From positions 1 to 64,000 of the forward strand of contig UEGR01000015.1 of the NCBI GenBank assembly GCA_900465685.1: DNA of 64,000 bases, written 5' to 3'. This DNA is from Hyphomicrobiales bacterium (GTDB taxonomy: Bacteria; Pseudomonadota; Alphaproteobacteria; Rhizobiales; Rhizobiaceae). Of the stretch, positions 38,436-63,223 are shown piece after piece. Made by a program: the position numbers and the translations under genes. The notes beneath the pieces were generated by a model. That model had not been told where the DNA came from. It saw only the letters and a program-made list of their open reading frames with translations, and made no database searches. Each line of letters begins with the position of its first letter. Position 1 is the stretch's first letter.

Positions 38436-39170
38436 TCACATTTTCAGATGTTCGCGTCTGGTGGAATCGACCAGATCACCCAGAGTTTCCAACTGTGCGT
38501 CACGGATATTGTGCCTGTTAAGACCACTGATTGTACGGAACAAATAATCAGCAGCTGACCCCCAACTTCCCTTGGCAACAGCGATCCGCCGTACTTTTTC
38601 GTACTGCGGTAGCATGCCGACGTAGTGCTCGTGAGTTCGGTCAACCGTGAACGCAATCGCGGCCCCAAACTTCGCGTTATTCTCTCCGATCACGTCAACC
38701 CAGATTGGTTTATAACCGCCGATAAGCATCTCCCGGTTCCACAATATTGCCAGTTCGGTGTCGATATCCCGCTCGGTGATCTGGTAGGCCACACCCTTAC
38801 AGACACCGCCAAGTTCGAGTGCCAGCATCAGACCCGGTTCGTCAGGCGTACCTCGCCCTACCATAGACGACAGGCAAAACGAACGATGCCATCCCCTTAC
38901 TTCTGCAATTCTGCTGTCTGCAATCTTCAAGGCAGGATTCCAGATCAACGATCCATAGGCAAATATCCAGAGATCGCCGATAGGACGGTGTTTCATGAAG
39001 TCAGCGAGCGAACGCCTGCGCTCCGCCTCTGAAAGCAGCCGAACGCCCGGTTCGTCCTGACGAAGCAAAGCCAATGCACCATCCGCTTCTAACAACTCGC
39101 GGGTCAAGATCGATGGACTTGACTGCGTCATCGAGAGCCTTGGATTACGGGTAGATTGAGCCATGCGCAT
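38436..39170 (-). CDS. chaC: glutathione-specific gamma-glutamylcyclotransferase (ChaC family)
   Basis: About 244 residues. WIFAYGSLIWNP is the glycine-rich substrate loop of ChaC; GWHRSFCLSSMVGRGTP and LWNREMLIGGYKP follow in the E. coli ChaC order, with the catalytic Glu expected in the last part. It cleaves glutathione to 5-oxoproline and Cys-Gly in the cytoplasm. Start uncertain: ATG 39170 has GGAGG 11 bases upstream, ATG 39131 would give the E. coli length. A copy of the island's 22-bp element lies 78 bp upstream (39248-39269), linking it to the alkylation response. Confidence 0.87.
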   Translation of the reverse strand: MRMAQSTRNPRLSMTQSSPSILTRELLEADGALALLRQDEPGVRLLSEAERRRSLADFMKHRPIGDLWIFAYGSLIWNPALKIADSRIAEVRGWHRSFCLSSMVGRGTPDEPGLMLALELGGVCKGVAYQITERDIDTELAILWNREMLIGGYKPIWVDVIGENNAKFGAAIAFTVDRTHEHYVGMLPQYEKVRRIAVAKGSWGSAADYLFRTISGLNRHNIRDAQLETLGDLVDSTRREHLKM

Positions 39171-39247
39171 GGACGTTATTGCCTCCGTTGTTAGAGGCGG
39201 CAAAATTGCGGCCTTGGCGCGACTTTTAAAGAAACACTTCCAGTCAA

Positions 39248-39269
39248 CACTCCGGTTGCTATCCTCAAA
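39248..39269 (-). promoter_or_regulatory. 22-bp island element, copy 1 (before chaC)
   Basis: TTTGA, ten variable bases, CGGAGTG, reading leftwards toward chaC. Spacing identical to the other eight copies. Confidence 0.75.
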
Positions 39270-39297
39270 TCGAGAAAAGCTTCTACAGCGCAGGAAA

Positions 39298-39741
39298 TCA
39301 AAGGGCGTGGTCAACGCGTATCTCGCGAAGAAAATCAAGCCAGAAGGTGATTTCCTTATCGGCTGGGGCAAACTTAAACGCCTTCTGGGTGATAACGAGC
39401 TTTCCATCGATTATAAGTAGTTTAAACCACGTATATTCGGGCATTCCGGTATTCTTGTTCAACGGGCAGTCTTGCCGCCAAAGAAGTGTCGATTGGTGTT
39501 GTTCGCACCCGCGCTCAATGATTTCAGTCGAGCCGCAAGGACACATTTCCGCCCATGCCTCACTCATGCCAGCATAGAAGCTCGCAAGGGTGTATTCATT
39601 AGTATTGCGAAAGACCTGAACGGTCAGCATTTCCGACCATTCCGGCAGAGTTTCGTCCTTGGGAATCATCTCAAGGATTGCACCTTTATTCGTCTTCGCG
39701 TGGTAGGCTACCTTGTAACCTTGAGGCATTTTTGAAAGCAT
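39298..39741 (-). CDS. uncharacterised protein of the alkylation island
   Basis: 147 residues, soluble, no signal peptide. Cysteines in EMCPCGSTEI and RGCEQHQ, then WRQDCPLNKNTG; the C-P-C pattern may bind metal. No family recognised. Start 39741 follows TTTGGGAAA; a second ATG lies four codons in. It is preceded at only 32 bp by copy 2 of the 22-bp element, so it is probably induced together with ada. Coding status is supported by this promoter element and by a sensible, non-repetitive protein. Confidence 0.65.
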   Translation of the reverse strand: MLSKMPQGYKVAYHAKTNKGAILEMIPKDETLPEWSEMLTVQVFRNTNEYTLASFYAGMSEAWAEMCPCGSTEIIERGCEQHQSTLLWRQDCPLNKNTGMPEYTWFKLLIIDGKLVITQKAFKFAPADKEITFWLDFLREIRVDHAL

Positions 39742-39772
39742 TTTCCCAAATTGCGGCGAACGGGACTATCGA

Positions 39773-39794
39773 CACTCCGCTTCTTACTTTCAAA
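39773..39794 (-). promoter_or_regulatory. 22-bp island element, copy 2
   Basis: TTTGA-N10-CGGAGTG on the minus strand, 32 bp before the uncharacterised gene starting at 39741. Confidence 0.75.
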
Positions 39795-39847
39795 TTGAGA
39801 AAATCTGAGAAATCCACCGCAATTCAGCCTCGCGGCATCGTTTCCAG

Positions 39848-39869
39848 TTTGAAGGTAAGAACCGGAGTT
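39848..39869 (+). promoter_or_regulatory. 22-bp island element, copy 3
   Basis: TTTGA-N10-CGGAGTT on the plus strand, 86 bp before the SnoaL-like gene. Copies 2 and 3 stand back to back 53 bp apart, giving a divergent control region. Confidence 0.75.
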
Positions 39870-39954
39870 TGGGGTGGGTCAATGTCGAATATTCCTTCCT
39901 TCAGGTCGTCGAGAAGACTCGATGGTCCCTGAAGATCAAAGAAGGAGCCATATT

Positions 39955-40410
39955 ATGAGCAAAGAAGAAGACAATAAAGCCGTTGTCGTTCGCTGGTTTA
40001 CCGAGTTTTGGGGCAAGGACGTTAATCTTGATGTGATTGACGAAATCGCGCATCCCGACATGCTCCTCCATTATTCGCTCCACGAACCGCGTCGCGGTCG
40101 CGACGATATCAGAGCCTTCATGACAGATTTTCGTGCGGCGTTCCCTGATCTTAACTTCTGGGGCACGGCTGATCTGATCGCCGAGGGTGACTATGTGGTT
40201 GGTCAGTGGGAAGGCGGCGGCACGCAAACCGGTGCTGCCTGGAATGATGTTCTGCCCGGCTACGAGGGTCTTCCTGCCGCGTCTGGCCGTAAAATGCACT
40301 TCACCGGCAAGACCGTTCTGAAGGTCGTTGACGGCTTGATCGTAGAAGAGAACGGTCTGGATGACGGCCTGACGGCAATGATGCAGCTCGGGCTGATCAA
40401 GAAGATCTGA
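39955..40410 (+). CDS. SnoaL-like (NTF2-fold) protein
   Basis: 151 residues, a single SnoaL/ester-cyclase domain: VVVRWFTEFWGKDVNLDVIDEI, a HY...RGRDDIRAFMTDFRAAFPDL segment (given in part), and VVGQWEGGGTQTG. Such proteins are small hydrolases, isomerases or binding proteins; the reaction cannot be read. ATG 39955 has AAGGAG upstream. Its upstream 22-bp element places it in the alkylation regulon, and a strong terminator follows. Confidence 0.82.
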   Translation: MSKEEDNKAVVVRWFTEFWGKDVNLDVIDEIAHPDMLLHYSLHEPRRGRDDIRAFMTDFRAAFPDLNFWGTADLIAEGDYVVGQWEGGGTQTGAAWNDVLPGYEGLPAASGRKMHFTGKTVLKVVDGLIVEENGLDDGLTAMMQLGLIKKI

Positions 40411-40452
40411 TCGACACGGGCCACAGTAGCCTTTCAACAAGAAGATCGTATA

Positions 40453-40488
40453 GATGAGGCTGGCACTTAAACAAGTGCCAGCCTCATC
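40453..40488 (+). terminator. rho-independent terminator after the SnoaL-like gene
   Basis: Perfect 16-bp stem (GATGAGGCTGGCACTT and its complement) with an AAAC loop, followed by GATTTTG. Very strong. Confidence 0.85.
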
Positions 40489-40769
40489 GATTTTGTGCCC
40501 GGATATCCTACCATTTCCCAGGTAAAAAACGGGAACACTATAACTGTTAGACTGAATGTTATGCGAGGGTCTGAAATCCAGCACCAGGATGGGGGGCATG
40601 GAGCAGCCCAACAGCCGTACGCACGATCCGGCCACTATATGGAAGGCGAGGCGAGGCTATTCCAGTCTTCCGCATAGCGGGATATTACGCGCCACTTTTA
40701 AATCCCCGATAAGTGTTTTTCGATCATCAGATATCCGCAAACCGCGGGCAATGGGTGGAATTATTCCGA

Positions 40770-40791
40770 TTTGAAAGCAAGGATCGGAGTG
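40770..40791 (+). promoter_or_regulatory. 22-bp island element, copy 4 (before ada)
   Basis: TTTGA-N10-CGGAGTG, 56 bp before the ada start. Its inner part AAAGCAAG resembles the core of the enterobacterial Ada box, which makes Ada autoregulation plausible. Confidence 0.78.
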
Positions 40792-40846
40792 TGTTCGACG
40801 CGGAGAGAAGACATTGTCGATCAAGATCATTTACGGGTAGAAGACA

Positions 40847-41944
40847 ATGTCCAAGAATTTTCAATCGACATCAATATCGCACACCTCGACAGTTTCCGTT
40901 GCGGATGATCCACGCTGGGCACGCATTGTCGCTCGCGATAAGTCTGCAGATGGTCATCTCTGGTATTCCGTCTCCACGACCGGGATTTATTGCCGGCCCT
41001 CATGCCCGTCGCGTACGGCAAACCCGAAGAACGTGGCCTTGCATGATACAATTATGAGCGCACGAGCGACCGGGTTTCGCCCTTGCAAGAGGTGCAATCC
41101 CGAAGGTCTCTCGCTTGACAGTGAAAACGCGGCACTGGTAGCGAAGGCTTGCCGCCTCATAGAGGACAGTGAGGAAGAACTGTCGCTAGAGGCGCTCGCT
41201 GCTGCTGTTGATCGCAGTCCAAGTTATTTCCATCGGATGTTCAAAACCTCAACGGGCTTGACGCCGAAGGTTTACGCCTCCGGTCATCGTGCAAAGAAGT
41301 TGCGCGAGGGCCTTGAAACCGGAACGAGCGTTACGGAGGCGATGTATGATGCCGGGTTCAATTCAAGTGGCCGTTTTTATGAGAAGTCGACCGGAATGCT
41401 TGGCATGACCCCGACACAATATCGGGCAGGCGGTCTCAATGAGGAAATCAAATTTGCTGTCGGACAGTCCAGTTTGGGAGCAATCCTAGTGGCATCCAGC
41501 AAAAAAGGCGTGGCCGCGATCCTGCTTGGTGATGATCCGGATGCATTGGTTCGCGATCTTCAGGATCGTTTTCAGAAGGCGCGGTTGATCGGCATGGATC
41601 GCGAATATGAGGCGCTGATAGCCAGTGTCTGCGGTTTCGTCGAAAATCCGGGTATAGGTCTTGATCTGCCTCTTGACGTCCGTGGCACGGCCTTTCAACG
41701 CCGTGTCTGGCAGGCATTGCAGGAAATTCCAGTCGGCGAGCGTGTCTCTTACTCGGAAATCGCTCGGCGCATCGGATCGCCAAGAGCAACGCGGGCGGTT
41801 GCCGGAGCGTGTGCCGCAAACAATATAGCGATCGCCATTCCATGCCATCGCGTCGTGCGTAACGACGGTGCTCTTTCCGGCTATGCGTGGGGTGTCGATC
41901 GAAAGCGCGCACTCCTGGACCGGGAGGCGTCTCACGTCATCTGA
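40847..41944 (+). CDS. ada: Ada, bifunctional methyl-phosphotriester/O6-methylguanine methyltransferase and activator
   Basis: 365 residues with all three parts of Ada. N-terminal zinc/methyl-acceptor domain: Cys49, Cys53, Cys80 and Cys83, the same 4-27-3 spacing as Cys38/42/69/72 of E. coli. AraC HTH at about 95-190 (LAAAVDRSPSYFHRMFKTST; MYDAGFNSSGRFYEKS). C-terminal alkyltransferase with IPCHRVVR, acceptor Cys near 333. It repairs phosphotriesters and O6-methylguanine and, once methylated at Cys49, activates its regulon. Central gene of the island; element copy 4 precedes it. Confidence 0.95.
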   Translation: MSKNFQSTSISHTSTVSVADDPRWARIVARDKSADGHLWYSVSTTGIYCRPSCPSRTANPKNVALHDTIMSARATGFRPCKRCNPEGLSLDSENAALVAKACRLIEDSEEELSLEALAAAVDRSPSYFHRMFKTSTGLTPKVYASGHRAKKLREGLETGTSVTEAMYDAGFNSSGRFYEKSTGMLGMTPTQYRAGGLNEEIKFAVGQSSLGAILVASSKKGVAAILLGDDPDALVRDLQDRFQKARLIGMDREYEALIASVCGFVENPGIGLDLPLDVRGTAFQRRVWQALQEIPVGERVSYSEIARRIGSPRATRAVAGACAANNIAIAIPCHRVVRNDGALSGYAWGVDRKRALLDREASHVI

Positions 41945-42069
41945 CGCAGGAGCTCGAAAGCACTGCGCTTTACCGCAGGCTGTTGTTGAACCCAATTGTA
42001 ACACGGCCTCGATATGGTCATCTCAAACCGGCTGCGCTTTGCGATCGCCGGCGAATGCAAGGCATCCAT

Positions 42070-42711
42070 ATGAACTTACTCTCACGCTACGACCAATCCG
42101 TCGCCTTCCTATCCGCTCATGACGATGACTGGGCAAAATTGATAGAGCTGGTTGGTCCTTGTCGACATGACCCCAAGGCCGCCCGCGAACCATACGAAGC
42201 TTTGGTGCGGGCAATTGCGTACCAACAACTGACGGCCAAAGCCGGCGATGCGATCATAGCTCGTCTCAAGGCTCTTTTCGTTGAGCGCGATTTTCCAACC
42301 CCGCACGATCTCATAGGGGCCGAGTTCGACCTGCTGCGGCAGTGTGGTTTCTCAGCCAGCAAGATTGCTACTATCAAGGCAATTGCTCAAGGAACCTTGG
42401 AAGGGATTGTCCCCACCCGTGAGATCGCCGCGACCATGGACGATGAAGCACTGATCGACAGAATGGTCGGTATCAAGGGCATTGGCCGGTGGACCGTCGA
42501 GATGTTGTTGATGTATTCGCTGGAGCGAATGGACGTATTGCCCGTGGACGACTTTGGTGTCCGTGAAGGCTATCGCGTCCTTAAATCGCTATCTGAACAG
42601 CCCAAACCTAAGCAACTGCGTGAAATTTCAAAAGCCTGGTCGCCCCATCGCACGGTTGCTGCCTGGTATTTGTGGCGCATACCTCGTGAACGCGGAAACG
42701 TCCTCAAATAA
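42070..42711 (+). CDS. alkA: DNA-3-methyladenine glycosylase II
   Basis: 213 residues, HhH-GPD superfamily: YEALVRAIAYQQLTAKAG, the hairpin KGIGRWTVEMLLMYSL and catalytic Asp in LPVDDFGVREGY. It excises 3-methyladenine and related lesions. Shorter than E. coli AlkA because the N-terminal TBP-like domain is missing, as in many alphaproteobacterial relatives. ATG 42070 has AAGG seven bases upstream; it follows ada by 125 bp. No clear element copy lies in that gap, so it is probably read through from ada. Confidence 0.9.
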   Translation: MNLLSRYDQSVAFLSAHDDDWAKLIELVGPCRHDPKAAREPYEALVRAIAYQQLTAKAGDAIIARLKALFVERDFPTPHDLIGAEFDLLRQCGFSASKIATIKAIAQGTLEGIVPTREIAATMDDEALIDRMVGIKGIGRWTVEMLLMYSLERMDVLPVDDFGVREGYRVLKSLSEQPKPKQLREISKAWSPHRTVAAWYLWRIPRERGNVLK

Positions 42712-42832
42712 ACGTTCATCGGAGTGATCGCAGGTTTGGCATCAAGCCCTGAAACGCGGATCGCGATCCATCGTCGTGCATTGCGGGGAACCCAAGCAGA
42801 ACGTGTCCAGGCGCAAGGCAAGGTAGAAAAGC

Positions 42833-43465
42833 ATGCATCTTCAAAACCGTGTCACGCCATTTGGCGCGATCGTCGCCATTTCACAGCGTGGTACATTTAC
42901 TGGCAACCGCGGCATCATCCATGATCCAGTGACGAGGACCTTACTGAACAAGCGGTGGGCGAGCCGGACATGGCTTGTGTGTGAGTGTGAATTCAACGGG
43001 CGTCGTAGGGAGGTAATGACAGGCCGTAAATGGACCGAATTGTTCTTCCTTGACGAAGCGGTGGCACTCGCTGCAGGCCATCGTCCCTGTTTTCTGTGCC
43101 GACGCCAGGCGGCGGAAAAGTTCCGGGCGTGCTGGGCATCGGCAAAGGCAGAGGCGTATCCCTCAGCCAGACATATGGATGCTGTCCTTCACGCCGAACG
43201 TCTTGATCACAATCGCAAGCGATTGCACTGCATCACGCGCCTCATCAACGAACTGCCGAACGGTGCGGTCGTTGCTGTCGGGGAGGAGGCTTACACATTG
43301 CAAGACGGTCTTGCACATCGATGGACTGTTGAGGGCTATGACGGGCCCGAAATCCTCCATGAAGCGGACTGGTTGCTGACGCCGCCGTCGACAGTCATGG
43401 CGCTCATCGCGGGCTACCAGCCCGTTCTCCACCCTTCGATTCACACCAAACTCAATAGGTCTTGA
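42833..43465 (+). CDS. uncharacterised four-cysteine protein coupled to alkB
   Basis: 210 residues, no signal, no transmembrane segment. Cys50-x-Cys52 (WLVCECEF) and Cys86-x2-Cys89 (GHRPCFLCRR) could form a zinc site; GHRPCFLC recalls the GFRPCKRC of Ada, though the rest does not match. Followed by histidine-rich stretches (ARHMDAVLHAERLDHNRKRLHC, quoted in part). Its stop is one base from the alkB start, so they form one translational unit. A half-conserved element (only ATCGGAGTG) lies at 42718-42726. No family name known to me. Confidence 0.75.
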   Translation: MHLQNRVTPFGAIVAISQRGTFTGNRGIIHDPVTRTLLNKRWASRTWLVCECEFNGRRREVMTGRKWTELFFLDEAVALAAGHRPCFLCRRQAAEKFRACWASAKAEAYPSARHMDAVLHAERLDHNRKRLHCITRLINELPNGAVVAVGEEAYTLQDGLAHRWTVEGYDGPEILHEADWLLTPPSTVMALIAGYQPVLHPSIHTKLNRS

Positions 43466-43466
43466 G

Positions 43467-44117
43467 ATGCCTGATCTTTTTGACACGCTATCGCCGCTCG
43501 GTCCGGCAACAGAAATCATGGCGGAAGGAGCCCGGCTGTTGCGCGGCGTGGCACTTCCCTATGAGAAGGATTTGCTGGCGGCACTGAGCGAAATAGTCAG
43601 ACGGTCCCCCTTTCGCCATATGGTAACGCCAGGTGGATACACCATGTCAGTGGCAATGACGAACTGCGGTACTGCTGGTTGGATAACAGATCGAACAGGT
43701 TATCGCTATGATCGCAACGACCCTGAGTCAGGTCAGCCTTGGCCTGTAATGCCTGAATGTTTCATGAATCTGGCAGTTGAGGCAGCGGGTCGTGCGGGTT
43801 ATCCGGATTTTCGTCCTGACGCGTGCCTGATCAATCGCTATGAACCGGGTGCCCGCCTGTCCCTGCATCAAGACAAGAACGAACGCGACTTCGCCAATCC
43901 GATCGTATCGGTCTCGCTCGGTCTGCCGGCGACCTTCCAGTTTGGAGGTCTGAAGCGAAACGACCCAGTCAGGAAATACGCACTGCTACACCGCGACGTT
44001 GCCGTTTGGGGCGGCTCGTCAAGACTCTTCTATCATGGCGTTCCCGAATTAAAGGAGGGCGTCCACGAGACCGTCGGGCGGATGCGCATAAACCTTACAT
44101 TTCGTGGAGCACTATAG
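43467..44117 (+). CDS. alkB: AlkB, 2OG-Fe(II) DNA/RNA demethylase
   Basis: 216 residues, same length as E. coli AlkB. Iron ligands His134 and Asp136 (LSLHQDKNE) and His190 (LFYHGV); 2-oxoglutarate Arg207 and the second Arg213 in RINLTFR; substrate segment PVMPECF. Oxidatively removes methyl groups from 1-methyladenine and 3-methylcytosine. One base after the four-cysteine gene. All key residues present. Confidence 0.95.
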   Translation: MPDLFDTLSPLGPATEIMAEGARLLRGVALPYEKDLLAALSEIVRRSPFRHMVTPGGYTMSVAMTNCGTAGWITDRTGYRYDRNDPESGQPWPVMPECFMNLAVEAAGRAGYPDFRPDACLINRYEPGARLSLHQDKNERDFANPIVSVSLGLPATFQFGGLKRNDPVRKYALLHRDVAVWGGSSRLFYHGVPELKEGVHETVGRMRINLTFRGAL

Positions 44118-44136
44118 CTTCAGATGTTTCTTTCAG

Positions 44137-44158
44137 TTTGATGACAATAACCGGAGTG
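44137..44158 (+). promoter_or_regulatory. 22-bp island element, copy 5
   Basis: TTTGA-N10-CGGAGTG, 20 bp after the alkB stop and 50 bp before the ATG at 44208. Confidence 0.72.
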
Positions 44159-44207
44159 CCATAAGAATTGTCTTGTGGCTAGGTATGTTATCATTCGTAG
44201 AGTGGAC

Positions 44208-44522
44208 ATGCGATTGTCAGGTTTCAACGATCTGCCCTCCGCAACGACCAGAACAGGGAAACCCGCTACCATGTTTACGCGCGGCGGATTCTATACCAAA
44301 ACGAGCCGGCGCAAGTCACGCGGGTCTGAAGAGGTTATCGACATACTCATGGCGTTTGCGCACGGCGACCCTGACAAGACGCTTGTGATGAAACATATCG
44401 GTCAACTGCTTGTGGCTGGGCACGCCGATGTTGAACTGCTCGATAATGGCGAAGCTGAAGTCCGCTTCACCTCGGGTGAAACCTTTCTCCTTGCAGCGAC
44501 ATCGATCCTCAGACTTACTTGA
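44208..44522 (+). CDS. uncharacterised small basic protein of the alkylation island
   Basis: 104 residues. Basic N-terminal part (TKTSRRKSRGSEE), then HGDPDKTLVMKHIGQLLVAGHADVELLDNGEAEVRFTSG-like sequence with alternating strands. No family recognised. A GTG start at 44175 is possible, but ATG 44208 has GAGTGGAC upstream. Directly downstream of element copy 5, so likely induced with the rest. Confidence 0.6.
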   Translation: MRLSGFNDLPSATTRTGKPATMFTRGGFYTKTSRRKSRGSEEVIDILMAFAHGDPDKTLVMKHIGQLLVAGHADVELLDNGEAEVRFTSGETFLLAATSILRLT

Positions 44523-44675
44523 CCGACCAATGGGACCGACGGCCCGCCAGAGCAAGGCTCAAGCCGATTACAGTGCAATATGTTGACCACGACAGTCCGC
44601 CTCTGGTCGTTTCGACCTCTAAGGGAGCCGGATCAATTAATATGGCGGCGGCATCCGATTGTGCCAGAAATGCAC

Positions 44676-44697
44676 TTTGAAAGTATGAACCGGAGTG
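44676..44697 (+). promoter_or_regulatory. 22-bp island element, copy 6
   Basis: TTTGA-N10-CGGAGTG, 137 bp before the first Oxygenase-NA paralogue. The flanking 311-bp gap (44523-44833) contains nothing else that was recognised. Confidence 0.73.
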
Positions 44698-44833
44698 CGG
44701 GCGCCCATTCACAAAGATAGCCAATAATATCAAGAGAGCTCGGCGGATTGTCACCATCCGATGGTGCTCGATTTCAACAGACAATCGTCCGTCAGCTTAT
44801 TCCTCGACGGCGTCGTTCGAAAGAAAATTGATC

Positions 44834-45586
44834 ATGAAAGCGCAACTGGATCCCGCTAGTCTCGATCTTCCATCCTCACGTTACATCGCACGCATTGCTC
44901 AATATCGATGGGACCGCATCGCGACGGATTTAGACGCTTATGGCGCCTCAGTTCTTCCCGGCCTCTTATCGACTGATGAATGTATCGCCGCAGAACAACT
45001 GCTTACCGGTGGATCACTGTCTCGCGTGCCGTCAGTCGAAGAACAGCGCGCCTGGGGAAATGGAAACTATCGTTATACCCGCTACCCCATGCCTGATCTG
45101 ATGTCAGAATTGAGGGCTGTCATCTATCCGTATCTGGTGACTATCGCCAATGGCTGGAACGAGAAGATGGAAATAGATGAACGCTACCCCATCAGCCATA
45201 GTGAATATCTTGGGATTTGTCGTCAAGCACGCCAGACCGTTCCGACTTCAATGATGCTTGAGCACATCGTCGACCAACAATGTCTGCTGCACCAGGACGT
45301 ATTCGGAGAACAGGTATTTCCTCTTCAGATGGTCATTATGCTCTCGCAACGCGGTACGGAATACGCTGGCGGCGAATTCGTCATCACAGAACAGCGCCCG
45401 CGCATGCAGACACGTCCCGAGGTCGTCACCCTCAACAAGGGTGACGCGGTGGTGTTTGCAGTATCAAACCGGCCTGTGACGGGAACGCGTGGCACGTATC
45501 GCGTTAATTTACGTCACGGTTTCAGTAAGGTTCGCGAAGGTCGGCAACGCGCGCTCAGCATTACCTTTCACGACGCAGTTGCGTAA
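44834..45586 (+). CDS. 2OG-Fe(II) oxygenase, Oxygenase-NA type, paralogue 1
   Basis: 250 residues. Iron triad His153, Asp155 (LLHQDVFG) and His228 (RVNLRHGFSK); double-stranded beta-helix segments VFPLQMVIML, GGEFVITEQRPRMQ. The family (PF09859) is described as an oxygenase acting on damaged DNA and often lies beside ada. This copy is the most divergent of three: its middle region (RVPSVEEQRAWGNGNYRYT) differs from the GFGKGEY type of the other two. ATG 44834 preferred over TTG 44828. Paralogue 2 follows after 38 bp. Confidence 0.85.
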   Translation: MKAQLDPASLDLPSSRYIARIAQYRWDRIATDLDAYGASVLPGLLSTDECIAAEQLLTGGSLSRVPSVEEQRAWGNGNYRYTRYPMPDLMSELRAVIYPYLVTIANGWNEKMEIDERYPISHSEYLGICRQARQTVPTSMMLEHIVDQQCLLHQDVFGEQVFPLQMVIMLSQRGTEYAGGEFVITEQRPRMQTRPEVVTLNKGDAVVFAVSNRPVTGTRGTYRVNLRHGFSKVREGRQRALSITFHDAVA

Positions 45587-45624
45587 CGGCCCCTTGTCCG
45601 CACCAGGTGTATGGAGAATAAATC

Positions 45625-46371
45625 ATGTCCACACTCCAGAATGAACATGTTCTGAAGTCCAGGCTTTCGCCAACAGAACGTATTGAACAGATCGATTGGG
45701 ATCGAATGTCCAATGATCTGGCCAACGGCGGTTCTGCTGTGGCCCGGCAACTTCTGACGTCCGAGGAATGCGAAGCGCTCACAGCGCTGTATCCTCAGAA
45801 CGGACTTTTCAGGAGCCGCGTCGTTATGGCTCGATATGCTTTCGGTAAAGGCGAGTACCAATATTTCAGTTACCCGCTTCCTGATCTCGTCAGTGAGCTG
45901 CGGACGGCGCTTTACCGTCACCTGGCGCCAATCGCGAATAACTGGAACAACCGGATGCGTATTAATACCGCGTATCCTTCAGAGCACGCTGATTATCTCG
46001 ATATTTGCCATCGCGCTGGCCAAAAAAGACCGACGCCGTTGCTGCTGGAATACAATGCCGGAGACTATTGTTGCATGCACCAGGACCTTTACGGAGAACT
46101 TGCGTTCCCGATGCAGGTTGCGATCCTCCTGGCCGAGCCGGAACGCGACTTTACTGGCGGAGAGTTTCTACTGGTTGAACAGAACCCGCGGGGTCTTTCA
46201 AAGGCGGAAGTGGTCCCGCTTCGTCAAGGCGACGCAGTGGCCTTCGCGGTCAATCACCGCCCGGCAAAGAGCGCTCGAGGTTCCGCGCGTGTAAATCTCC
46301 GCCACGGCGTCAGCCGACTGCACTCAGGGCATCGGCATACCCTCGGCATCATCTTCCACGATGCGAAGTAG
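45625..46371 (+). CDS. 2OG-Fe(II) oxygenase, Oxygenase-NA type, paralogue 2
   Basis: 248 residues, clearly homologous to the genes on both sides and closest to paralogue 3 (shared FGKGEY, YPLPDL, RPTPLLL, PERDFTGGEF). Iron triad His152, Asp154 (MHQDLYG), His227 (RVNLRHGVSR). Same operon as paralogue 1. ATG 45625 with GGAGAATAAATC upstream. Product of an old tandem duplication. Confidence 0.85.
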   Translation: MSTLQNEHVLKSRLSPTERIEQIDWDRMSNDLANGGSAVARQLLTSEECEALTALYPQNGLFRSRVVMARYAFGKGEYQYFSYPLPDLVSELRTALYRHLAPIANNWNNRMRINTAYPSEHADYLDICHRAGQKRPTPLLLEYNAGDYCCMHQDLYGELAFPMQVAILLAEPERDFTGGEFLLVEQNPRGLSKAEVVPLRQGDAVAFAVNHRPAKSARGSARVNLRHGVSRLHSGHRHTLGIIFHDAK

Positions 46372-46481
46372 TTTTGCGGCTGACCAAGCGAGTTGTCTTG
46401 TTCGAGGCATAGTGAAGTGTCAGCTCATAAACCGGTCGCAGCAGTGCCCGGTATTTTTCACCCCCGAAAGCAAAACTTCGA

Positions 46482-46503
46482 TTTGAAAACAAGGATCGGA
46501 GTT
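46482..46503 (+). promoter_or_regulatory. 22-bp island element, copy 7
   Basis: TTTGA-N10-CGGAGTT, 56 bp before the PCQR alkyltransferase homologue; same distance as copy 4 to ada. Confidence 0.75.
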
Positions 46504-46558
46504 TGGCGACGCAACGGGGAATGTAACTTTGATCGCCAGAATAGAGCAAGGAGTTACG

Positions 46559-47128
46559 ATGATGAACCGCACGATCAAAGCGGACACTCCGGGGTCTGAT
46601 CCGCAGTTGAATTTAACTTCAACAGCTGCTGACGTTCTATCGTATGCGATCGCTGACAGCGATCTCGGAAAGGTGCTGATTGCACGCAGCAAGATGGGCG
46701 TCTGCTCAATTCTACTCGGCGACGATGCCGAAGAGCTGACGGCGGACTTGGCCAGCCGTTTTCCGCAGTCCACACTCGTTCCGGGCGAAGCGATGCTGAA
46801 GGATGATATTGCAACGGTGCTGCGCTACATCAGCAAACCGTCCAGCGGCCTTCACCTGCCACTCGATATGCGTGGCACGCCCTTCCAGTGTCAGGTCTGG
46901 GAAAAACTGCAGGCGATCGACCCCGGCAAGACCCACAGCTACACGCAACTTGCGATGTCGATCAATCCTCTTACAAGTCCGCGCGCAGTTGCGCGTGCAT
47001 GCGCCGCAAATCCGATAGCACTCGCCATTCCGTGTCAACGCATCATCCGGACCAACGGTGACTTGGCTGGCTATCGCTGGGGACTTGATCGTAAGCGCGA
47101 ATTAATCCGTAGGGAGAAACTTTCATGA
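46559..47128 (+). CDS. O6-alkylguanine-DNA alkyltransferase homologue with PCQR active site
   Basis: 189 residues, an alkyltransferase-fold protein resembling the C-terminal half of Ada (RGTPFQCQVWEKLQAI; SPRAVARACAANPIALAIPC; DLAGYRWGLDRK). The acceptor Cys (about 159) is present but the next residue is Gln instead of the His of PCHR, the residue that activates the Cys through water; the usual Asn/Glu relay may therefore be impaired. It could be a slow transferase or a lesion-binding alkyltransferase-like factor. AAGGAG six bases before ATG 46559. Overlaps the start of oxygenase paralogue 3 (ATGA), so they are co-translated. Confidence 0.88.
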   Translation: MMNRTIKADTPGSDPQLNLTSTAADVLSYAIADSDLGKVLIARSKMGVCSILLGDDAEELTADLASRFPQSTLVPGEAMLKDDIATVLRYISKPSSGLHLPLDMRGTPFQCQVWEKLQAIDPGKTHSYTQLAMSINPLTSPRAVARACAANPIALAIPCQRIIRTNGDLAGYRWGLDRKRELIRREKLS

Positions 47129-47877
47129 ATCAGTCACTTGTTAATCTTGCTGTCCCGGCCAATGAGGATGTATCCGCTGAGGCTCGAGTTGCCGCCTACG
47201 ACTGGAAAGCTCTAGCTGATGAGCTAAACAGCTACGGATGCGCTGTCCTGCCCAAACTTCTAACACCAGTAGAATGCAGCAGCATCGCCGCGCTATATTC
47301 CGATGAGAGTCATTTCCGCAGTCATATTATCATGGCACGGCACGGCTTTGGAAAAGGCGAATATCGCTATTTCAAGTATCCGCTACCCGATCTGATCGGC
47401 GGAATGCGCACGGCACTCTATCCGCGCCTCGCTGACGTTGCCAACCACTGGAACGAGCGGATGGGAATGGATCATCGATTCCCAAACGATCACGCCTCAT
47501 ATCTTAGCCACTGTCATGATGCTGGTCAGACGCGGCCGACGCCCTTGCTACTGCAATACGTCCCCGGCGATTTCAACTGTCTGCACCATGATTTGTACGG
47601 CGATCTGTCATTCCCAATCCAGGTAGCTATCCTGTTGTCGGAACCTGACCGAGATTTTACAGGAGGGGAGTTCGCGCTGACCGAGCAACGACCGCGGATG
47701 CAGAGCAGGGTTGAAGTTGTCCCACTGAGACAGGGCGACGCGGTGGCATTTGCCGTCCATAACCGTCCAGTTCAGGGAACGAAAGGCAATTACCGTGTGA
47801 ATCTGCGTCACGGTGTTAGTCGCATACGATCCGGCATGCGTCACACCGTCGGGATCATTTTCCACGACGCTCGCTAA
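47125..47877 (+). CDS. 2OG-Fe(II) oxygenase, Oxygenase-NA type, paralogue 3
   Basis: 250 residues. Iron triad His154 and Asp156 in LHHDLYG (the x position is His instead of Gln) and His229 in RVNLRHGVSR. Otherwise very close to paralogue 2. Its ATG overlaps the stop of the PCQR alkyltransferase homologue, pointing to stoichiometric synthesis and possibly joint action. A strong terminator lies nine bases after the stop. Confidence 0.86.
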   Translation: MNQSLVNLAVPANEDVSAEARVAAYDWKALADELNSYGCAVLPKLLTPVECSSIAALYSDESHFRSHIIMARHGFGKGEYRYFKYPLPDLIGGMRTALYPRLADVANHWNERMGMDHRFPNDHASYLSHCHDAGQTRPTPLLLQYVPGDFNCLHHDLYGDLSFPIQVAILLSEPDRDFTGGEFALTEQRPRMQSRVEVVPLRQGDAVAFAVHNRPVQGTKGNYRVNLRHGVSRIRSGMRHTVGIIFHDAR

Positions 47878-47885
47878 TAACATGA

Positions 47886-47920
47886 CCCCGGCTCCCAAAA
47901 TGACATTGAGCCGGGGTTTT
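47886..47920 (+). terminator. rho-independent terminator after paralogue 3
   Basis: Nine-bp stem CCCCGGCTC / GAGCCGGGG, 13-base loop, then TTTT. It may also work for the convergent gene at 47999. Confidence 0.85.
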
Positions 47921-47998
47921 CCAAAACTTGGCCTCTATATAGGAAAGAGATAAACGCAGGTCGCGTGGTTTATGGAGTGCAGGCATTGACAGTTTGTT

Positions 47999-48298
47999 TC
48001 AGGGGGAAAGATTGTTGAGCAGCGTACATTTCACAACAGCACAGGCACCCGTTGCCGTTGGTACACTGGCGGGGATTCCATATTTTCCTGGACCGCACTG
48101 AGCACTGGTCGAGATGTAACGATCATAAAGCGTCATGCGTTTGTCTTTAGAAGGAAAGCGAAGGATTGCCTCACCTTTTTTCGCTAGCAAACTCTGGACG
48201 TTGGCACAGGATCGTGTGTGAATATCGAACCTATCGATCGCAATCGCAGGCACAGTCAGGCCAAATGTCAACATGAAAGGTAATATCGGTTTCCACAT
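47999..48298 (-). CDS. small exported cysteine-containing protein
   Basis: 99 residues with a signal peptide (MWKPILPFMLTFGLTVPAIA). The mature part has four cysteines (RSCANV, AQCGPG, GACAVVKC), suggesting two disulfides in the periplasm. ATG 48298 has a strong AAGGAG upstream; a TTG further upstream (48445) was rejected because it would bury the signal. Copy 8 of the 22-bp element lies 214 bp upstream in the right orientation, the longest distance in the set, so its regulation by the element is less certain. No family recognised. Confidence 0.65.
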   Translation of the reverse strand: MWKPILPFMLTFGLTVPAIAIDRFDIHTRSCANVQSLLAKKGEAILRFPSKDKRMTLYDRYISTSAQCGPGKYGIPASVPTATGACAVVKCTLLNNLSP

Positions 48299-48511
48299 AT
48301 GCTTCTCCTTACTGAGTAATTGCGGTGGGGCTGCATCGCCATAAAAAGACGTGATCCGCACAATGTTTGCGATATCCACGATTGGCGTTGATTTTCTGAA
48401 GTGATTAACACCAGTCGCGGAATTCATATTTACTTTGTGCGTCAATCATAACTATCGATGGCGGGCTTTTTTACTCACATCGCAATAGTACCTTATTATA
48501 CCGATGACACC

Positions 48512-48533
48512 CACTCCGTTTATTACTTTTAAA
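48512..48533 (-). promoter_or_regulatory. 22-bp island element, copy 8
   Basis: TTTAA-N10-CGGAGTG reading leftwards; the only copy with TTTAA. TATAAT follows 11 bases downstream. It lies 70 bp beyond the end of the leftward 48603 gene and before the 47999 gene. Confidence 0.68.
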
Positions 48534-48602
48534 TCGAAAATTGCTCGCTCGAATACGCTTTATCGGTCTATGGATATCTACATCGCCATCGATCCAGTTC
48601 AG

Positions 48603-49211
48603 CTACCAACCTGGATAAAAGGCGTAAAGCCTTGCCCAATCATCCAAAGCATCGGTCGCTTTTAAAGTGACGATTGCATCTGCGGCATGCCACGTGCACG
48701 GTACACGCCGAAGCCAGACATTGTCTTTCCCGGCCCTATAGAGCCACACAATCGATGCAGCAATCATTTGCCGGACATCTGTCATCTCGCGGTAGTCCGC
48801 GCGCCAATGCTCCATACCTGTTGGATGCACTTCGTCGCGCTGAAAATCATAGCCTTTTGGTCGTATCGCGTGATGATAGAGACCATGACCGTCATCACCG
48901 AAAAGCGCACTAAGCTCAAAGCGATTGATCATGTGACGTAACTGATATTCAAATGGCCTTGCCACGCCAGATAGCGGCCGCAAGAGATCGACGCCGATGA
49001 TATGCGACATATGCTTCATATCAGCGTCCTCCAGTTCAAGCCGTGCGCCGACCAATCGCGTGAACCGATAACCGGGAAACCGTTCTCGCGCCATCGCAGT
49101 AGAATTGAGCGATAATTGAACGAGCTCAAGCGGTTCAGCTAAATTTTCGCCCAACGCAACGGTGTGCCGAATGCCGTCATCTTTACGGCGATCATGACTT
49201 GAATCAGTCAT
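48603..49211 (-). CDS. uncharacterised protein coupled to an ogt-like gene
   Basis: 202 residues, soluble, rich in Arg, His and Trp, no known motif recognised. Segments such as HMSHIIGVDLLRPLSGVA, RHMINRFELSALFGDDGHG and the C-terminal WHAADAIVTLKATDALDDWA look like a compact alpha/beta protein. Starts one base after the stop of the alkyltransferase gene at 49213, so both are one unit under element copy 9. A role in handling alkylation damage is implied only by context. Confidence 0.72.
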   Translation of the reverse strand: MTDSSHDRRKDDGIRHTVALGENLAEPLELVQLSLNSTAMARERFPGYRFTRLVGARLELEDADMKHMSHIIGVDLLRPLSGVARPFEYQLRHMINRFELSALFGDDGHGLYHHAIRPKGYDFQRDEVHPTGMEHWRADYREMTDVRQMIAASIVWLYRAGKDNVWLRRVPCTWHAADAIVTLKATDALDDWARLYAFYPGW

Positions 49212-49212
49212 C

Positions 49213-49722
49213 TTACTGCACCTTGAAATGATGCTCGCGTCCCAGAAGAGCGCGCTTGCGATGCACTCCCCAACGATATCCTGAAATAGAGCCGTCCTTC
49301 TTGATCACGCGATGACAGGGAACGATCACGGCAATCGGGTTGTTAGCAATGGCGGCCGTAACTTCGCGCGCATCGCGAGAGCCTAGTTTTGCCGCTAGCG
49401 CACCGTAGCTTATCGTTTCGCCGATGGGAATTTCACGTAGCATTTGCCAGACTTCCACTTCATACGGCGTCCCTCGCAGATCAAGTGGCAAATCGCTTAT
49501 GTTTAACGGGTTATCGATCACGCTTGTGACGGTATCGATGACGTCGGAGAGTTCTTTTTGATTATGTTCCAGATCAGCATCAGGAAATCGGATGCGCAGC
49601 GCGCTTTCCATCGCCGTGTGTAACGAGGCAAATTCGAGTGCCACGATACCTTTCTCAGTCATGGCAACGATAAAGTCACCGAGTGAGCTCTTTCCCCACG
49701 CAAAGCGAATAATCTCCTGCAT
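49213..49722 (-). CDS. methylated-DNA-protein-cysteine methyltransferase (Ogt-like)
   Basis: 169 residues. RGTPYEVEVWQMLREIPIGE, SYGALAAKLGSRDAREVTAA and IVPCHRVIKKDGSISGYRWG give a complete alkyltransferase with acceptor Cys near 136 and the standard PCHRV. Repairs O6-alkylguanine by irreversible transfer. ATG 49722 has GGTAAGGTG upstream; the TTG at 49776 overlaps the promoter element and was rejected. Copy 9 of the 22-bp element lies 57 bp upstream. Contrast with the PCQR homologue at 46559. Confidence 0.92.
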   Translation of the reverse strand: MQEIIRFAWGKSSLGDFIVAMTEKGIVALEFASLHTAMESALRIRFPDADLEHNQKELSDVIDTVTSVIDNPLNISDLPLDLRGTPYEVEVWQMLREIPIGETISYGALAAKLGSRDAREVTAAIANNPIAVIVPCHRVIKKDGSISGYRWGVHRKRALLGREHHFKVQ

Positions 49723-49778
49723 CACCTTACCTTCCGAATCTATTGGATATCGAAGATAGGCGTACGTTTGGTTCAACG

Positions 49779-49800
49779 CGCTCCGATCCTTGCTCTCAAA
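49779..49800 (-). promoter_or_regulatory. 22-bp island element, copy 9
   Basis: TTTGA-N10-CGGAGCG reading leftwards, 57 bp before the ogt-like start; the rightmost copy and the edge of the island. Confidence 0.73.
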
Positions 49801-50702
49801 CTAAATAATCCTGAGACTGAAATTTTCGCGCGGAAGGGGAAATATGAAGTGCTATTTTTTTAATAAAATTAATACGATAATTCTATAATATACAATATAC
49901 CTCACGGCTCGTAGGTCTAAAATCGCGAGAAAAACTAGGATTATTTCAACTCTATTTCTATGTGAGGCGAGAGACAGTTTTTGTGACGAGGCGGAAGCGC
50001 CGAATCTTGACTGGCAATCTGGAATTGGAGCTACATCCAATTACAAGGGGCTGTTTGAGCCTGTTATTGGCTCTTACTCTGTATGAGTATTCTGTCATTC
50101 ATTTTGCCCCGCTTACCTATGCCGCTTGAAATTCGAGGCGGACCGGACGGAAATGCTCTATCGAACCAGAATTGCGACTGGGGGTGCCCCGACGCTACAG
50201 GATAGCAAGTATATCCGTGTTGCCTGCATTCATCCGGCGTAGTGAAAAGCGAGCTTGCCGACACGGACACCAACCCTATCGGCCAAGGCGATGAAGGGCT
50301 ATCGCGCGATCGGATTTCAACGGACACTATTTGGTCGGGCGCTGGGTTATGCGATCGAGCAGCCGCAAAGAAGTCGACGTCAATAAGACCGTAAGTGCGC
50401 TTGGCCTAGGCAGGTCAGAGGATCGCGTTAATTCCGTTGCGCTAAAAGACGCCGGCCAAGCGATTTAACTGTTCGGTTTGATTACGGGTTACTTGAAAGA
50501 CCTGGCGTCGTCAGTCAGCTGGAAGACGGCTTAAAGTCGGGCGCGCGAAAGAAACAAGCGTTCGCCGACTACAATTGCGTTGGCGTGTTCGAGCAAATCA
50601 ATCGACGTTTTCCAGAGTCTCGGCGAAGCTGGTAGTTTCAGGACGCATCCGCGACGTTGGGCTTAGTTTCGTCGTCGAACCTACCAGCGGTATCGCCTTT
50701 CG
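49801..50702. other. gene-poor boundary of the island, with a dispersed-repeat copy
   Basis: 902 bp. AT-rich at its left side, then a copy of the short dispersed repeat, GAATCTTGACTGGCAATCTG, at 50002-50021. The right half (about 50240-50700) is GC-rich and has broken coding-like stretches in several frames, but I could not identify a gene or a family in it. Confidence 0.5.
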
Positions 50703-62439: not shown

Positions 62440-63223
62440 ACACGATTTAGGTTTCTAGCTTTCAAAACGCTGGGTTGTTCGATGTTCAAAGGCCGCCATT
62501 TCGATAAGTCCGTTATCCTTCTGTGTGTTCGATGGTATTTGGCTTACAACCTGAGCCTGCGCAATCTGAAGGAAATGATGGCTGAGCGCGGTATTGCGAT
62601 GGACCATTCGACGGTGCATCGGTGGGTTTTGCATTTCAGCCCTAAATTGCTTGAGCGCTTCAATCGGAGGAAGCGCCAAGTCACGCGAAAATGGAACCTG
62701 GACGAGACCTATGTGAAGGTCAAAGGCGAATGGCTTTATCTATACCGTGCCATCGACAGCAATGGCGATACGGTCGAGTTCCTGTTTAGCCGAAACCGCG
62801 ATCTGCGAGCTGCAAAGCGCTTCTTGCGAAAGGCTCTGGTCCGTCATGGCAGGCCGGCGAGGATCACCATTGATGGCAGCCAGACCAACCGTATGGCAAT
62901 CATGCAGTGCGATGCAGAGAACCAGTTACGACAGGGTGGACAGCCTATCACCATCCGCTCCAGTAAATATATGAACAACACCATCGAGCAGGATCATCGC
63001 CGTGTCAAACGGCGGATACGATCCATGCTCGGCTTCAATTCTGAAGCCGCTGCCGGGATCACTCTGGCTGGTATCGAACTCGTTCACATGATGCGAAAGC
63101 AGCAGGGCGGCTTTGCCTCAACGGCGCCGCTAACCCTCAAGCAACAATTTTCAGCGCTCGCACCGTAATTGCATCTCCAGATAGAGCACCTTCCCTGCTA
63201 AACAAATTTTTGCAACACAGCCC
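62411..63223 (+). mobile_element. IS6-family insertion sequence, complete
   Basis: 813 bp bounded by inverted repeats: left GGGTTCTGTTGCAAACTTTT (62411-62430) and right, read inward, GGGCTGTGTTGCAAAAATTT (63204-63223), 16 of 20 positions equal. It encodes one transposase. The flanking octamers differ (CTCCGAAA left, ACGAAGCT right), so there is no 8-bp target duplication; the two flanks probably come from different places, joined by IS6-style replicative rearrangement. Confidence 0.9.
62482..63168 (+). CDS. IS6-family transposase
   Basis: 228 residues. RNase H-fold catalytic residues Asp74 (WNLDETYVKVKG), Asp131 (ITIDGSQTN) and Glu169 (NNTIEQDHRRVKRR), followed by IRSMLGF; N-terminal HTH DHSTVHRWVLHF. 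Intact, so potentially active. Catalyses replicative transposition producing cointegrates or adjacent deletions. Confidence 0.95.
   Translation: MFKGRHFDKSVILLCVRWYLAYNLSLRNLKEMMAERGIAMDHSTVHRWVLHFSPKLLERFNRRKRQVTRKWNLDETYVKVKGEWLYLYRAIDSNGDTVEFLFSRNRDLRAAKRFLRKALVRHGRPARITIDGSQTNRMAIMQCDAENQLRQGGQPITIRSSKYMNNTIEQDHRRVKRRIRSMLGFNSEAAAGITLAGIELVHMMRKQQGGFASTAPLTLKQQFSALAP

What the first reader, a model, noticed from the sequence alone, without database searches (positions are those of the whole stretch)
38436..49800. A compact alkylation-damage island with about fourteen genes on both strands
Seen: ada, alkA, alkB, an Ogt-like gene, a second alkyltransferase homologue, three Oxygenase-NA paralogues, chaC, a SnoaL-like gene and five uncharacterised genes in 11.4 kb. 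Known: ada/alkA/alkB form the adaptive response. Inference: this is an expanded adaptive-response system combining direct reversal, base excision, oxidative demethylation, thiol metabolism (ChaC) and unknown functions. The density of redundant alkyl-damage functions in one regulon is unusual.
Basis: partly seen in the sequence, partly recalled or inferred. Interest (0 to 1): 0.9.

Follow-up and report, generated by a model that had tools for sequence, protein, structure and literature searches.

The report
Alkylation-repair island with shared switch
Fifteen neighbouring genes, most of them for repairing methylated DNA, share one DNA control site in front of almost every transcription unit, so they probably form a self-contained, transferable repair kit switched on by the damage sensor Ada, much larger than the textbook version and holding five genes of unknown function.

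Summary
In detail: 15 genes at 38436-49800, namely ada, alkA, alkB, ogt, a second alkyltransferase, three Oxygenase-NA genes, chaC, a SnoaL-like gene and five unknowns. A box, TTTGA-N10-CGGAG, lies upstream of 9 inferred transcription units (the chaC copy is weak). At up to 2 mismatches, 9 of 10 matches in the 5.14 Mb genome lie here. Related islands in 15 other genomes or plasmid records (Rhizobium, Ensifer, Pseudosulfitobacter, unnamed kin) keep much of the gene order and many boxes. The island Ada groups with theirs, not with the genome's core Ada, and the same-genus genomes searched lack u147 (0 of 34), so lateral acquisition is likely. The genome has the most boxes and Oxygenase-NA genes of 394 family genomes. 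u210 weakly resembles part of the Ada methyl-accepting zinc domain. Closest known: the E. coli and Caulobacter adaptive responses. New variant of a known kind. Induction by methylating agents is untested.

The parts
38436..39164 (-). chaC: ChaC-like gamma-glutamylcyclotransferase (probable start 39164; ORF open to 39407)
   Evidence: PF04752 E 2.6e-36; start inferred
39250..39269 (-). box 1 (weak), upstream of chaC
   Evidence: 2 mismatches, PWM score 18.4; no good box at chaC in the 2 other ChaC-bearing loci
39298..39741 (-). u147: uncharacterised gene
   Evidence: ORF; relative with box in L128, 61% identity; 0 of 34 same-genus genomes
39775..39794 (-). box 2, upstream of u147
   Evidence: exact pattern match, score 33.1
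39848..39867 (+). box 3, upstream of the SnoaL-like gene
   Evidence: score 34.5
39874..40410 (+). SnoaL-like / ester cyclase gene (a likely start is MSKEEDN, about 39955)
   Evidence: PF07366 E 1.7e-26
40770..40789 (+). box 4, upstream of ada-alkA-u210-alkB
   Evidence: score 37.9
40847..41944 (+). ada: four-Cys zinc domain, AraC HTH, O6-meG methyltransferase (PCHR)
   Evidence: motifs CRPSC, CKRC, IPCHRV; no RLHD
42070..42711 (+). alkA: 3-methyladenine DNA glycosylase
   Evidence: PF00730; start, and 76-90% identity in 10 locus rows (9 distinct, L080 and L126 are one island)
42833..43465 (+). u210: uncharacterised; weak similarity to part of the Ada N-terminal zinc domain
43467..44117 (+). 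alkB: oxidative demethylase
   Evidence: PF13532 E 7.9e-56; PRK15401
44137..44156 (+). box 5, upstream of u115
   Evidence: score 28.3
44175..44522 (+). u115: uncharacterised gene (a start at 44271 is possible)
   Evidence: ORF; relatives in 8 island loci
44676..44695 (+). box 6, upstream of oxyA-oxyB
   Evidence: 1 mismatch; score 31.3
44828..45586 (+). oxyA: Oxygenase-NA 2OG-Fe(II) oxygenase
   Evidence: PF09859 E 4.6e-67; HxD...H motif
45625..46371 (+). oxyB: Oxygenase-NA paralogue
   Evidence: PF09859 E 5.2e-81; HxD...H motif
46482..46501 (+). box 7, upstream of mgmt2-oxyC
   Evidence: score 36.0
46529..47128 (+). mgmt2: second alkyltransferase homologue with PCQR in place of PCHR
   Evidence: PF01035 E 1.7e-27; PCHR in 12 of 12 other rows labelled mgmt2
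47125..47877 (+). oxyC: Oxygenase-NA paralogue, overlaps mgmt2 by 4 bases
   Evidence: PF09859 E 1.2e-84; HxD...H motif
47999..48445 (-). sec148: small, probably secreted Cys-containing protein (likely start about 48303; secretion judged by eye)
   Evidence: ORF; relatives in L076, L077, L145, also L148
48514..48533 (-). box 8, upstream of sec148
   Evidence: 1 mismatch; score 27.4
48603..49211 (-). u202: uncharacterised gene, 1 base downstream of ogt
   Evidence: 4 of 394 family genomes, all in islands
49213..49776 (-). ogt: O6-alkylguanine-DNA alkyltransferase
   Evidence: PF01035 E 2.4e-29, PF02870; PCHR
49781..49800 (-). box 9, upstream of ogt-u202
   Evidence: score 33.2

Best explanation
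A horizontally transferable, self-contained adaptive-response island. Methylation of the zinc-domain Cys of the island Ada turns it into an activator (inferred from E. coli Ada). It then binds the shared box TTTGA-N2-RYAA-N4-CGGAG in front of 9 inferred transcription units: chaC; u147; SnoaL; ada-alkA-u210-alkB; u115; oxyA-oxyB; mgmt2-oxyC; sec148; ogt-u202 (boxes shown; units, binding and activation inferred). The products remove O6- and O4-alkyl groups (Ada, Ogt, perhaps Mgmt2), excise 3-methyladenine (AlkA), oxidise N1/N3-methyl groups (AlkB) and presumably hydroxylate other alkyl lesions (the three Oxygenase-NA proteins). The rest are co-induced accessory genes. ChaC, if induced, would lower glutathione or degrade S-alkyl-glutathione; from general knowledge, thiols activate nitrosoguanidines (speculative).
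For: Nine boxes in the island, each 5' of a first gene. At up to 2 mismatches 10 matches in the genome, 9 in the island, the tenth before the core ada on C33; reversed-pattern control 3. In 19 loci outside the matrix training the box (score 20 or more) precedes mgmt2 in 9 of 9, ogt 4 of 4, ada 13 of 18, u115 3 of 4, SnoaL 4 of 8, u147 1 of 1; genes internal to the window's units: alkA 0 of 5, u210 0 of 6, alkB 0 of 6, u202 0 of 2, oxyC 2 of 14; control windows 0 of 4000. Synteny in 15 other genomes or records. The island Ada groups with other islands' Ada at 100/99; its own core Ada lies far away. Ada keeps both acceptor-site motifs. Published precedent: the Caulobacter Cada2 regulon uses GCAA + CGG boxes, and its reporter promoter drives a co-operonic MGMT-domain and dioxygenase pair (PMC10957082).
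Against: No expression or binding data. The 19 loci are not all independent of the box: 13 were chosen through box, PF09859 or own-genome hits, and the 6 chosen by DNA similarity (L079, L080, L145-L148) give mgmt2 4 of 4, ogt 1 of 1, ada 2 of 6, SnoaL 1 of 3. Counting only the islands proper among the 19, ada has its own box in 6 of 11 (missing in L140, L145-L148); the other positive ada rows are core-type or small loci. In the training locus L074 a box (32.8) precedes u210, a gene that is internal in the window. The chaC box is weak, and chaC is 0 of 1 held out. Two more Ada-type genes exist in the genome, and the core one carries the same box, so which Ada drives the island is open. In Brucella abortus two ada genes were not induced by MMS (PMC6813329, passages), so an alphaproteobacterial ada need not mean a working response.
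Confidence: 0.82

Rival explanations
1. The island is one regulon, but the box is read by another regulator: the core Ada on C33, the third Ada on C26, or an unrelated AraC-type protein. The island ada is then a passenger alkyltransferase.
For: The same type of box precedes the core ada in the two core loci read (L143, L144), and its sequence recurs in many same-genus genomes. Five islands show no box immediately before ada.
Against: The island ada itself has the best-scoring box in the window (37.9), and ada travels with the island on the six named plasmid records.
Confidence: 0.12
2. The genes are only a loose cluster of repair genes put together by transfer on plasmids; the box is a promoter element of general use, not a damage-specific operator.
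For: u210 is common without the island. The island lies on large plasmids in 6 named records and has lost genes in several loci.
Against: In this genome the box is nearly confined to the island and one ada locus: 9 of 10 matches in the island and the tenth before the core ada. Box occurrence mostly follows first genes and not internal ones.
Confidence: 0.05

Closest known systems
Escherichia coli Ada regulon (ada-alkB, alkA, aidB)
   Same: Ada of the same domain order with the four-Cys zinc site and PCHR; alkA and alkB under the same control; a GCAA-type core in the operator with an A/T-rich element 5' of it (E. coli operator form recalled).
   Different: 15 genes in 9 inferred units at one place rather than 4 genes in three operons (PMC4437013, abstract and passages); an invariant CGGAG 3' of the core; none of the 15 proteins was named as an AidB/acyl-CoA dehydrogenase; three Oxygenase-NA, ogt, chaC, SnoaL and five unknowns added.
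Caulobacter Cada2 adaptive response (PMC10957082; abstract, passages and sections 5 and 10 read)
   Same: GCAA + CGG elements in the operator; MGMT-domain gene co-operonic with a 2OG dioxygenase gene, like mgmt2-oxyC.
   Different: The regulator here is of the E. coli kind (zinc domain, no RLHD motif) although the box has an X-box-like CGG. That paper reports that EcAda-like proteins go with A+B boxes and Cada2-like proteins with B+X boxes. The core-to-CGG spacer is 4 bases here, 3 there. That regulon has 6 genes.
Core ada-Oxygenase-NA locus of the same genus (L144 in the same genome, L143 in another)
   Same: Same type of box, EcAda-like Ada and one Oxygenase-NA gene nearby.
   Different: Ada 60-61% identical, one oxygenase, none of the other island genes found.

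Membership tests
Ada-dependent adaptive response regulon | Ada with methyl-accepting four-Cys zinc domain, AraC HTH and MGMT domain | tested here: met
   Pfam; motifs CRPSC, CKRC, SPSYFHR, IPCHRV
Ada-dependent adaptive response regulon | shared Ada-type operator before the ada gene and its targets | tested here: met
   9 boxes by sequence; conserved in many other loci, not before ada in 5 of 11 held-out islands; that Ada binds it is not shown
Ada-dependent adaptive response regulon | repair genes alkA and alkB among the targets | tested here: met
   inferred operon behind box 4
Ada-dependent adaptive response regulon | induction by methylating agents through Ada | not testable with these tools
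   needs RNA-seq or reporter assays
E. coli-type operator (A-box AAT, B-box GCAA) | AAT-N6-GCAA (recalled form) | tested here: inconclusive
   Over 9 boxes the A-box position reads AAT, GAT, AGT or ACT; the B-box position reads GTAA (3), GCAA (2), ACAA (2), GTAT (1), ATAG (1)
Cada2-type system | regulator with RLHD domain and without four-Cys zinc domain | tested here: not met
Cada2-type system | B-box + X-box (GCAA, 3-base spacer, CGG) in promoters | tested here: inconclusive
   CGG present in 9 of 9 boxes, spacer 4 bases rather than 3, exact GCAA in 2 of 9
Ada_Zn_binding family (for u210) | score above the Pfam cut-off and four zinc cysteines | tested here: not met
   window u210 no match; 4 of 18 members match weakly, best E 0.017; 3 conserved Cys
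Functional O6-alkylguanine alkyltransferase (for mgmt2) | PCHR active site | tested here: not met
   PCQR in the window, PCHR in 12 of 12 other rows labelled mgmt2

The most novel reading that the evidence does not exclude
The island is a mobile adaptive-response kit with a composite operator that joins E. coli-type and Caulobacter-type half-sites under one EcAda-like protein. u210 would be a stand-alone derivative of the Ada methyl-acceptor domain (C50 aligned with Cys38, C86 and C89 with Cys69 and Cys72) that takes up or senses methyl phosphotriesters beside AlkB. The remaining unknowns u202, u115, u147 and sec148 would be new families of alkylation-damage proteins.
Probability: 0.25. Interest if true: 0.78.

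Novelty: new variant of a known kind. Interest (0 to 1): 0.6.

Why it matters
The published Ada regulons that I looked at have 4 genes (E. coli) or 6 (Caulobacter). Here a shared box ties 15 genes, five of them unnamed, to an Ada protein in one small island that also lies on plasmids of plant-associated and marine bacteria. That makes each unknown a concrete, testable candidate for alkylation defence, and the box gives a simple handle for finding more members: it also precedes an SDR-like gene (named by eye) in three other loci. It bears on the published split between EcAda-type and Cada2-type operators. Eight literature searches (open-licence PMC only, 1 to 20 papers listed per search out of up to 188) showed no title or abstract start describing such an island in Hyphomicrobiales; I read listings, and passages or sections of four papers.

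Tried and rejected

AlphaFold model of u210: mean pLDDT 47.9 from 7 sequences, too poor for a fold search; not used.

Direct BLASTP of u210 with the island Ada: nothing meaningful. Only profile methods show the link, and weakly (PDB E 0.039-0.099 for N-Ada chains; hhalign 70.8%, against 0.1% for two control alignments).

Neighbours of u210 outside the island: the recurring neighbours printed come from 14 related loci; no functional lead. Two plasmid contexts of u210 relatives show no alkylation genes in their annotation.

Distant u202 relatives on Aromatoleum and Pseudomonas plasmids: the two contexts viewed show no alkylation genes in their annotation.

No match: u147 in plasmids and phages, oxyC in the PDB. 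PHROGs gave nothing for four of the five unknowns and one weak hit for sec148 (E 0.062).

Mobile origin by base composition: GC 0.531 in the island against 0.545 in the rest of the window; not informative. No integrase or conjugation gene was looked for systematically.

Errors of mine, corrected: the alkA query was out of frame (fixed; ignore the alkA identities; one search has no alkA row). The oxygenase motif pattern was too short (fixed: motif in all three window paralogues and in 15 of 20 other rows listed for oxyC; L144, L131, L143, L130 and L075 did not match the pattern).
Full report
What is there. Fifteen genes lie in 38436-49800. Ten have recognisable families: ChaC, SnoaL-like, Ada, AlkA, AlkB, three Oxygenase-NA (PF09859), an MGMT-domain protein and Ogt. 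Five match no Pfam family above its cut-off: u147, u210, u115, sec148 and u202. Comparison with relatives in other islands gives pN/pS below 1 for all five, though u147 rests on one pair.

The control site. Reading the intergenic DNA showed a repeated element, TTTGA...CGGAG. With a position weight matrix there are nine sites in the island at scores of 18.4 to 37.9 (eight of them, all but the chaC site, were used to make the matrix) and one further window site at 17.2 outside it; the reversed window gave one hit above 15. Over the nine sites TTT, the A of TTTGA and CGGAG are invariant; the core position reads RYAA in 7 of 9. At up to two mismatches the assembly of 5.14 Mb holds 10 matches, against 3 for the reversed pattern: nine are in the island (the one before chaC with two mismatches) and the tenth precedes the core ada on contig C33. 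Each island box precedes the first gene of an inferred unit: chaC, u147, SnoaL, ada-alkA-u210-alkB, u115, oxyA-oxyB, mgmt2-oxyC, sec148, ogt-u202. Unit boundaries are inferred from strand and spacing.

Conservation. The search for related loci with u210 gave 6 loci, 5 of them with further island genes; plasmid and genome searches added more. I count 15 other genomes or records with an Ada at least 74% identical to the window's and at least three other island genes: L074, L075, L076, L077, L079, L080 (fetched again as L126), L125, L127, G664 (L128, L129), L136, L140, L145, L146, L147, L148. The SnoaL gene of L147 is taken from its record annotation, 'ester cyclase'. Not counted: L131, L133 and L139 (more divergent or fewer genes) and L073 (Camelimonas fluminis, decayed, no ada on its contig). 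Gene order is mostly shared, but L136 and the sec148 gene of L145 and L148 are placed differently. L147 and L075 also carry chaC. Six of the 15 are named plasmid records (L079, L080, L145-L148). G633 (L126) has a contig of the same length as the plasmid behind L080, so that record belongs to the window's family in this collection although it is labelled Roseateles.

Box test. Scoring 300 bases upstream of each gene, in 19 loci not used for the matrix: mgmt2 9 of 9, ogt 4 of 4, ada 13 of 18, u115 3 of 4, SnoaL 4 of 8, u147 1 of 1, chaC 0 of 1. Genes internal to the window's units: alkA 0 of 5, u210 0 of 6, alkB 0 of 6, u202 0 of 2, oxyC 2 of 14 (L139 and L148, where a box directly precedes it). 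Random windows from 40 u210 contexts outside islands: 0 of 4000. Thirteen of the 19 loci had been found through box, oxygenase or own-genome searches, so they are not independent. In the six found by DNA similarity the counts are mgmt2 4 of 4, ogt 1 of 1, ada 2 of 6, SnoaL 1 of 3. Of the 18 ada rows, 11 are in counted islands and 6 of these 11 have a box (not L140, L145-L148); the other 7 rows (L131, L133, L138, L139, L141, L143, L144) all have one. In the training set, L074 has a strong box (32.8) before u210 and L076 only a weak one before ada (15.3). For sec148 a box is seen in the window, L077, L145 and L148 but not in L076.

Rarity and origin. In 394 family genomes a looser pattern gave 86 sites in 54 genomes by my count of the list, against 20 control matches, so a good part of the single sites may be chance; the window genome has the most (8), the next 5. 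Oxygenase-NA occurs in 69 of 394, and only the window genome has four. u202 occurs in 4 of 394, each time in an island (one is a fragment). u147 is in 0 of 34 same-genus genomes and, at 26-36% identity, in 3 of the other 65. Same-genus genomes show at most three box matches at one mismatch and at most one Oxygenase-NA gene (22 of 34 have one). The Ada tree (23 rows) puts the window Ada with those of L079, L080/L126, L125, L127 and L139 at 100/99 and the core Ada of the same genome far away. Lateral acquisition is the simplest reading. Remnants of oxyB in L073 and L074 suggest that the larger form was present in other lineages and decayed.

u210. 142 of 397 order genomes have a relative. Of 40 contexts fetched, one (L102) had AlkB next to it and 39 had no other island gene (alkA rechecked). 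A profile of 18 sequences finds N-Ada chains as its four best PDB matches (E 0.039-0.099), 4 of 18 members weakly match Ada_Zn_binding, and hhalign aligns C50, C86 and C89 with Ada cysteines (70.8%, against 0.1% for the u202 and u115 alignments). The numbers Cys38, 69 and 72 are E. coli numbering from recall. This is a lead, not membership.

mgmt2. The window copy has PCQR where 12 of 12 other rows labelled mgmt2 have PCHR, so it may have lost alkyl transfer and act otherwise, or be failing.

Comparison with the known. PMC6813329 (passages) reports two ada genes in Brucella abortus that are not induced by MMS. PMC10957082 (abstract, passages, sections 5 and 10) describes the Cada2 regulon of 6 genes, GCAA + CGG boxes, and the co-operonic ccna_00745 and ccna_00746 (2OG dioxygenase and MGMT domain). 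PF09859 is found in Caulobacter vibrioides, the only one of 14 control genomes, but that ccna_00745 is that gene is my inference. PMC4437013 (abstract and passages) gives the four-gene E. coli regulon. PMC3925955 (passages) notes an alkB gene on a Paracoccus replicon. The island works like these systems; it differs in size, in gene content, in its self-contained form and in the composite look of its operator.

Noticed in passing
window 62482-63168: IS240/IS6-type transposase (PF13610) about 13 kb from the island.
   Followed up: no
window 59009-61753: Autotransporter protein (PF03797, PF18883).
   Followed up: no
L151 694-1752 (own genome, contig C26): A third Ada-type gene with a four-Cys motif in the same genome; no box match lies on that contig.
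   Followed up: partly
   Followed up: partly
L134 4754-4797, L135 8737-8780: Two diverging boxes remain where ogt is only a fragment: apparent scar of a lost island end.
   Followed up: no
window 49800-50700: Stretch without convincing genes; a 180-base part resembles Sinorhizobium plasmids at 73%.
   Followed up: partly
L102 7123-8388: u210 directly beside alkB without the rest of the island in an unnamed order relative.
   Followed up: no
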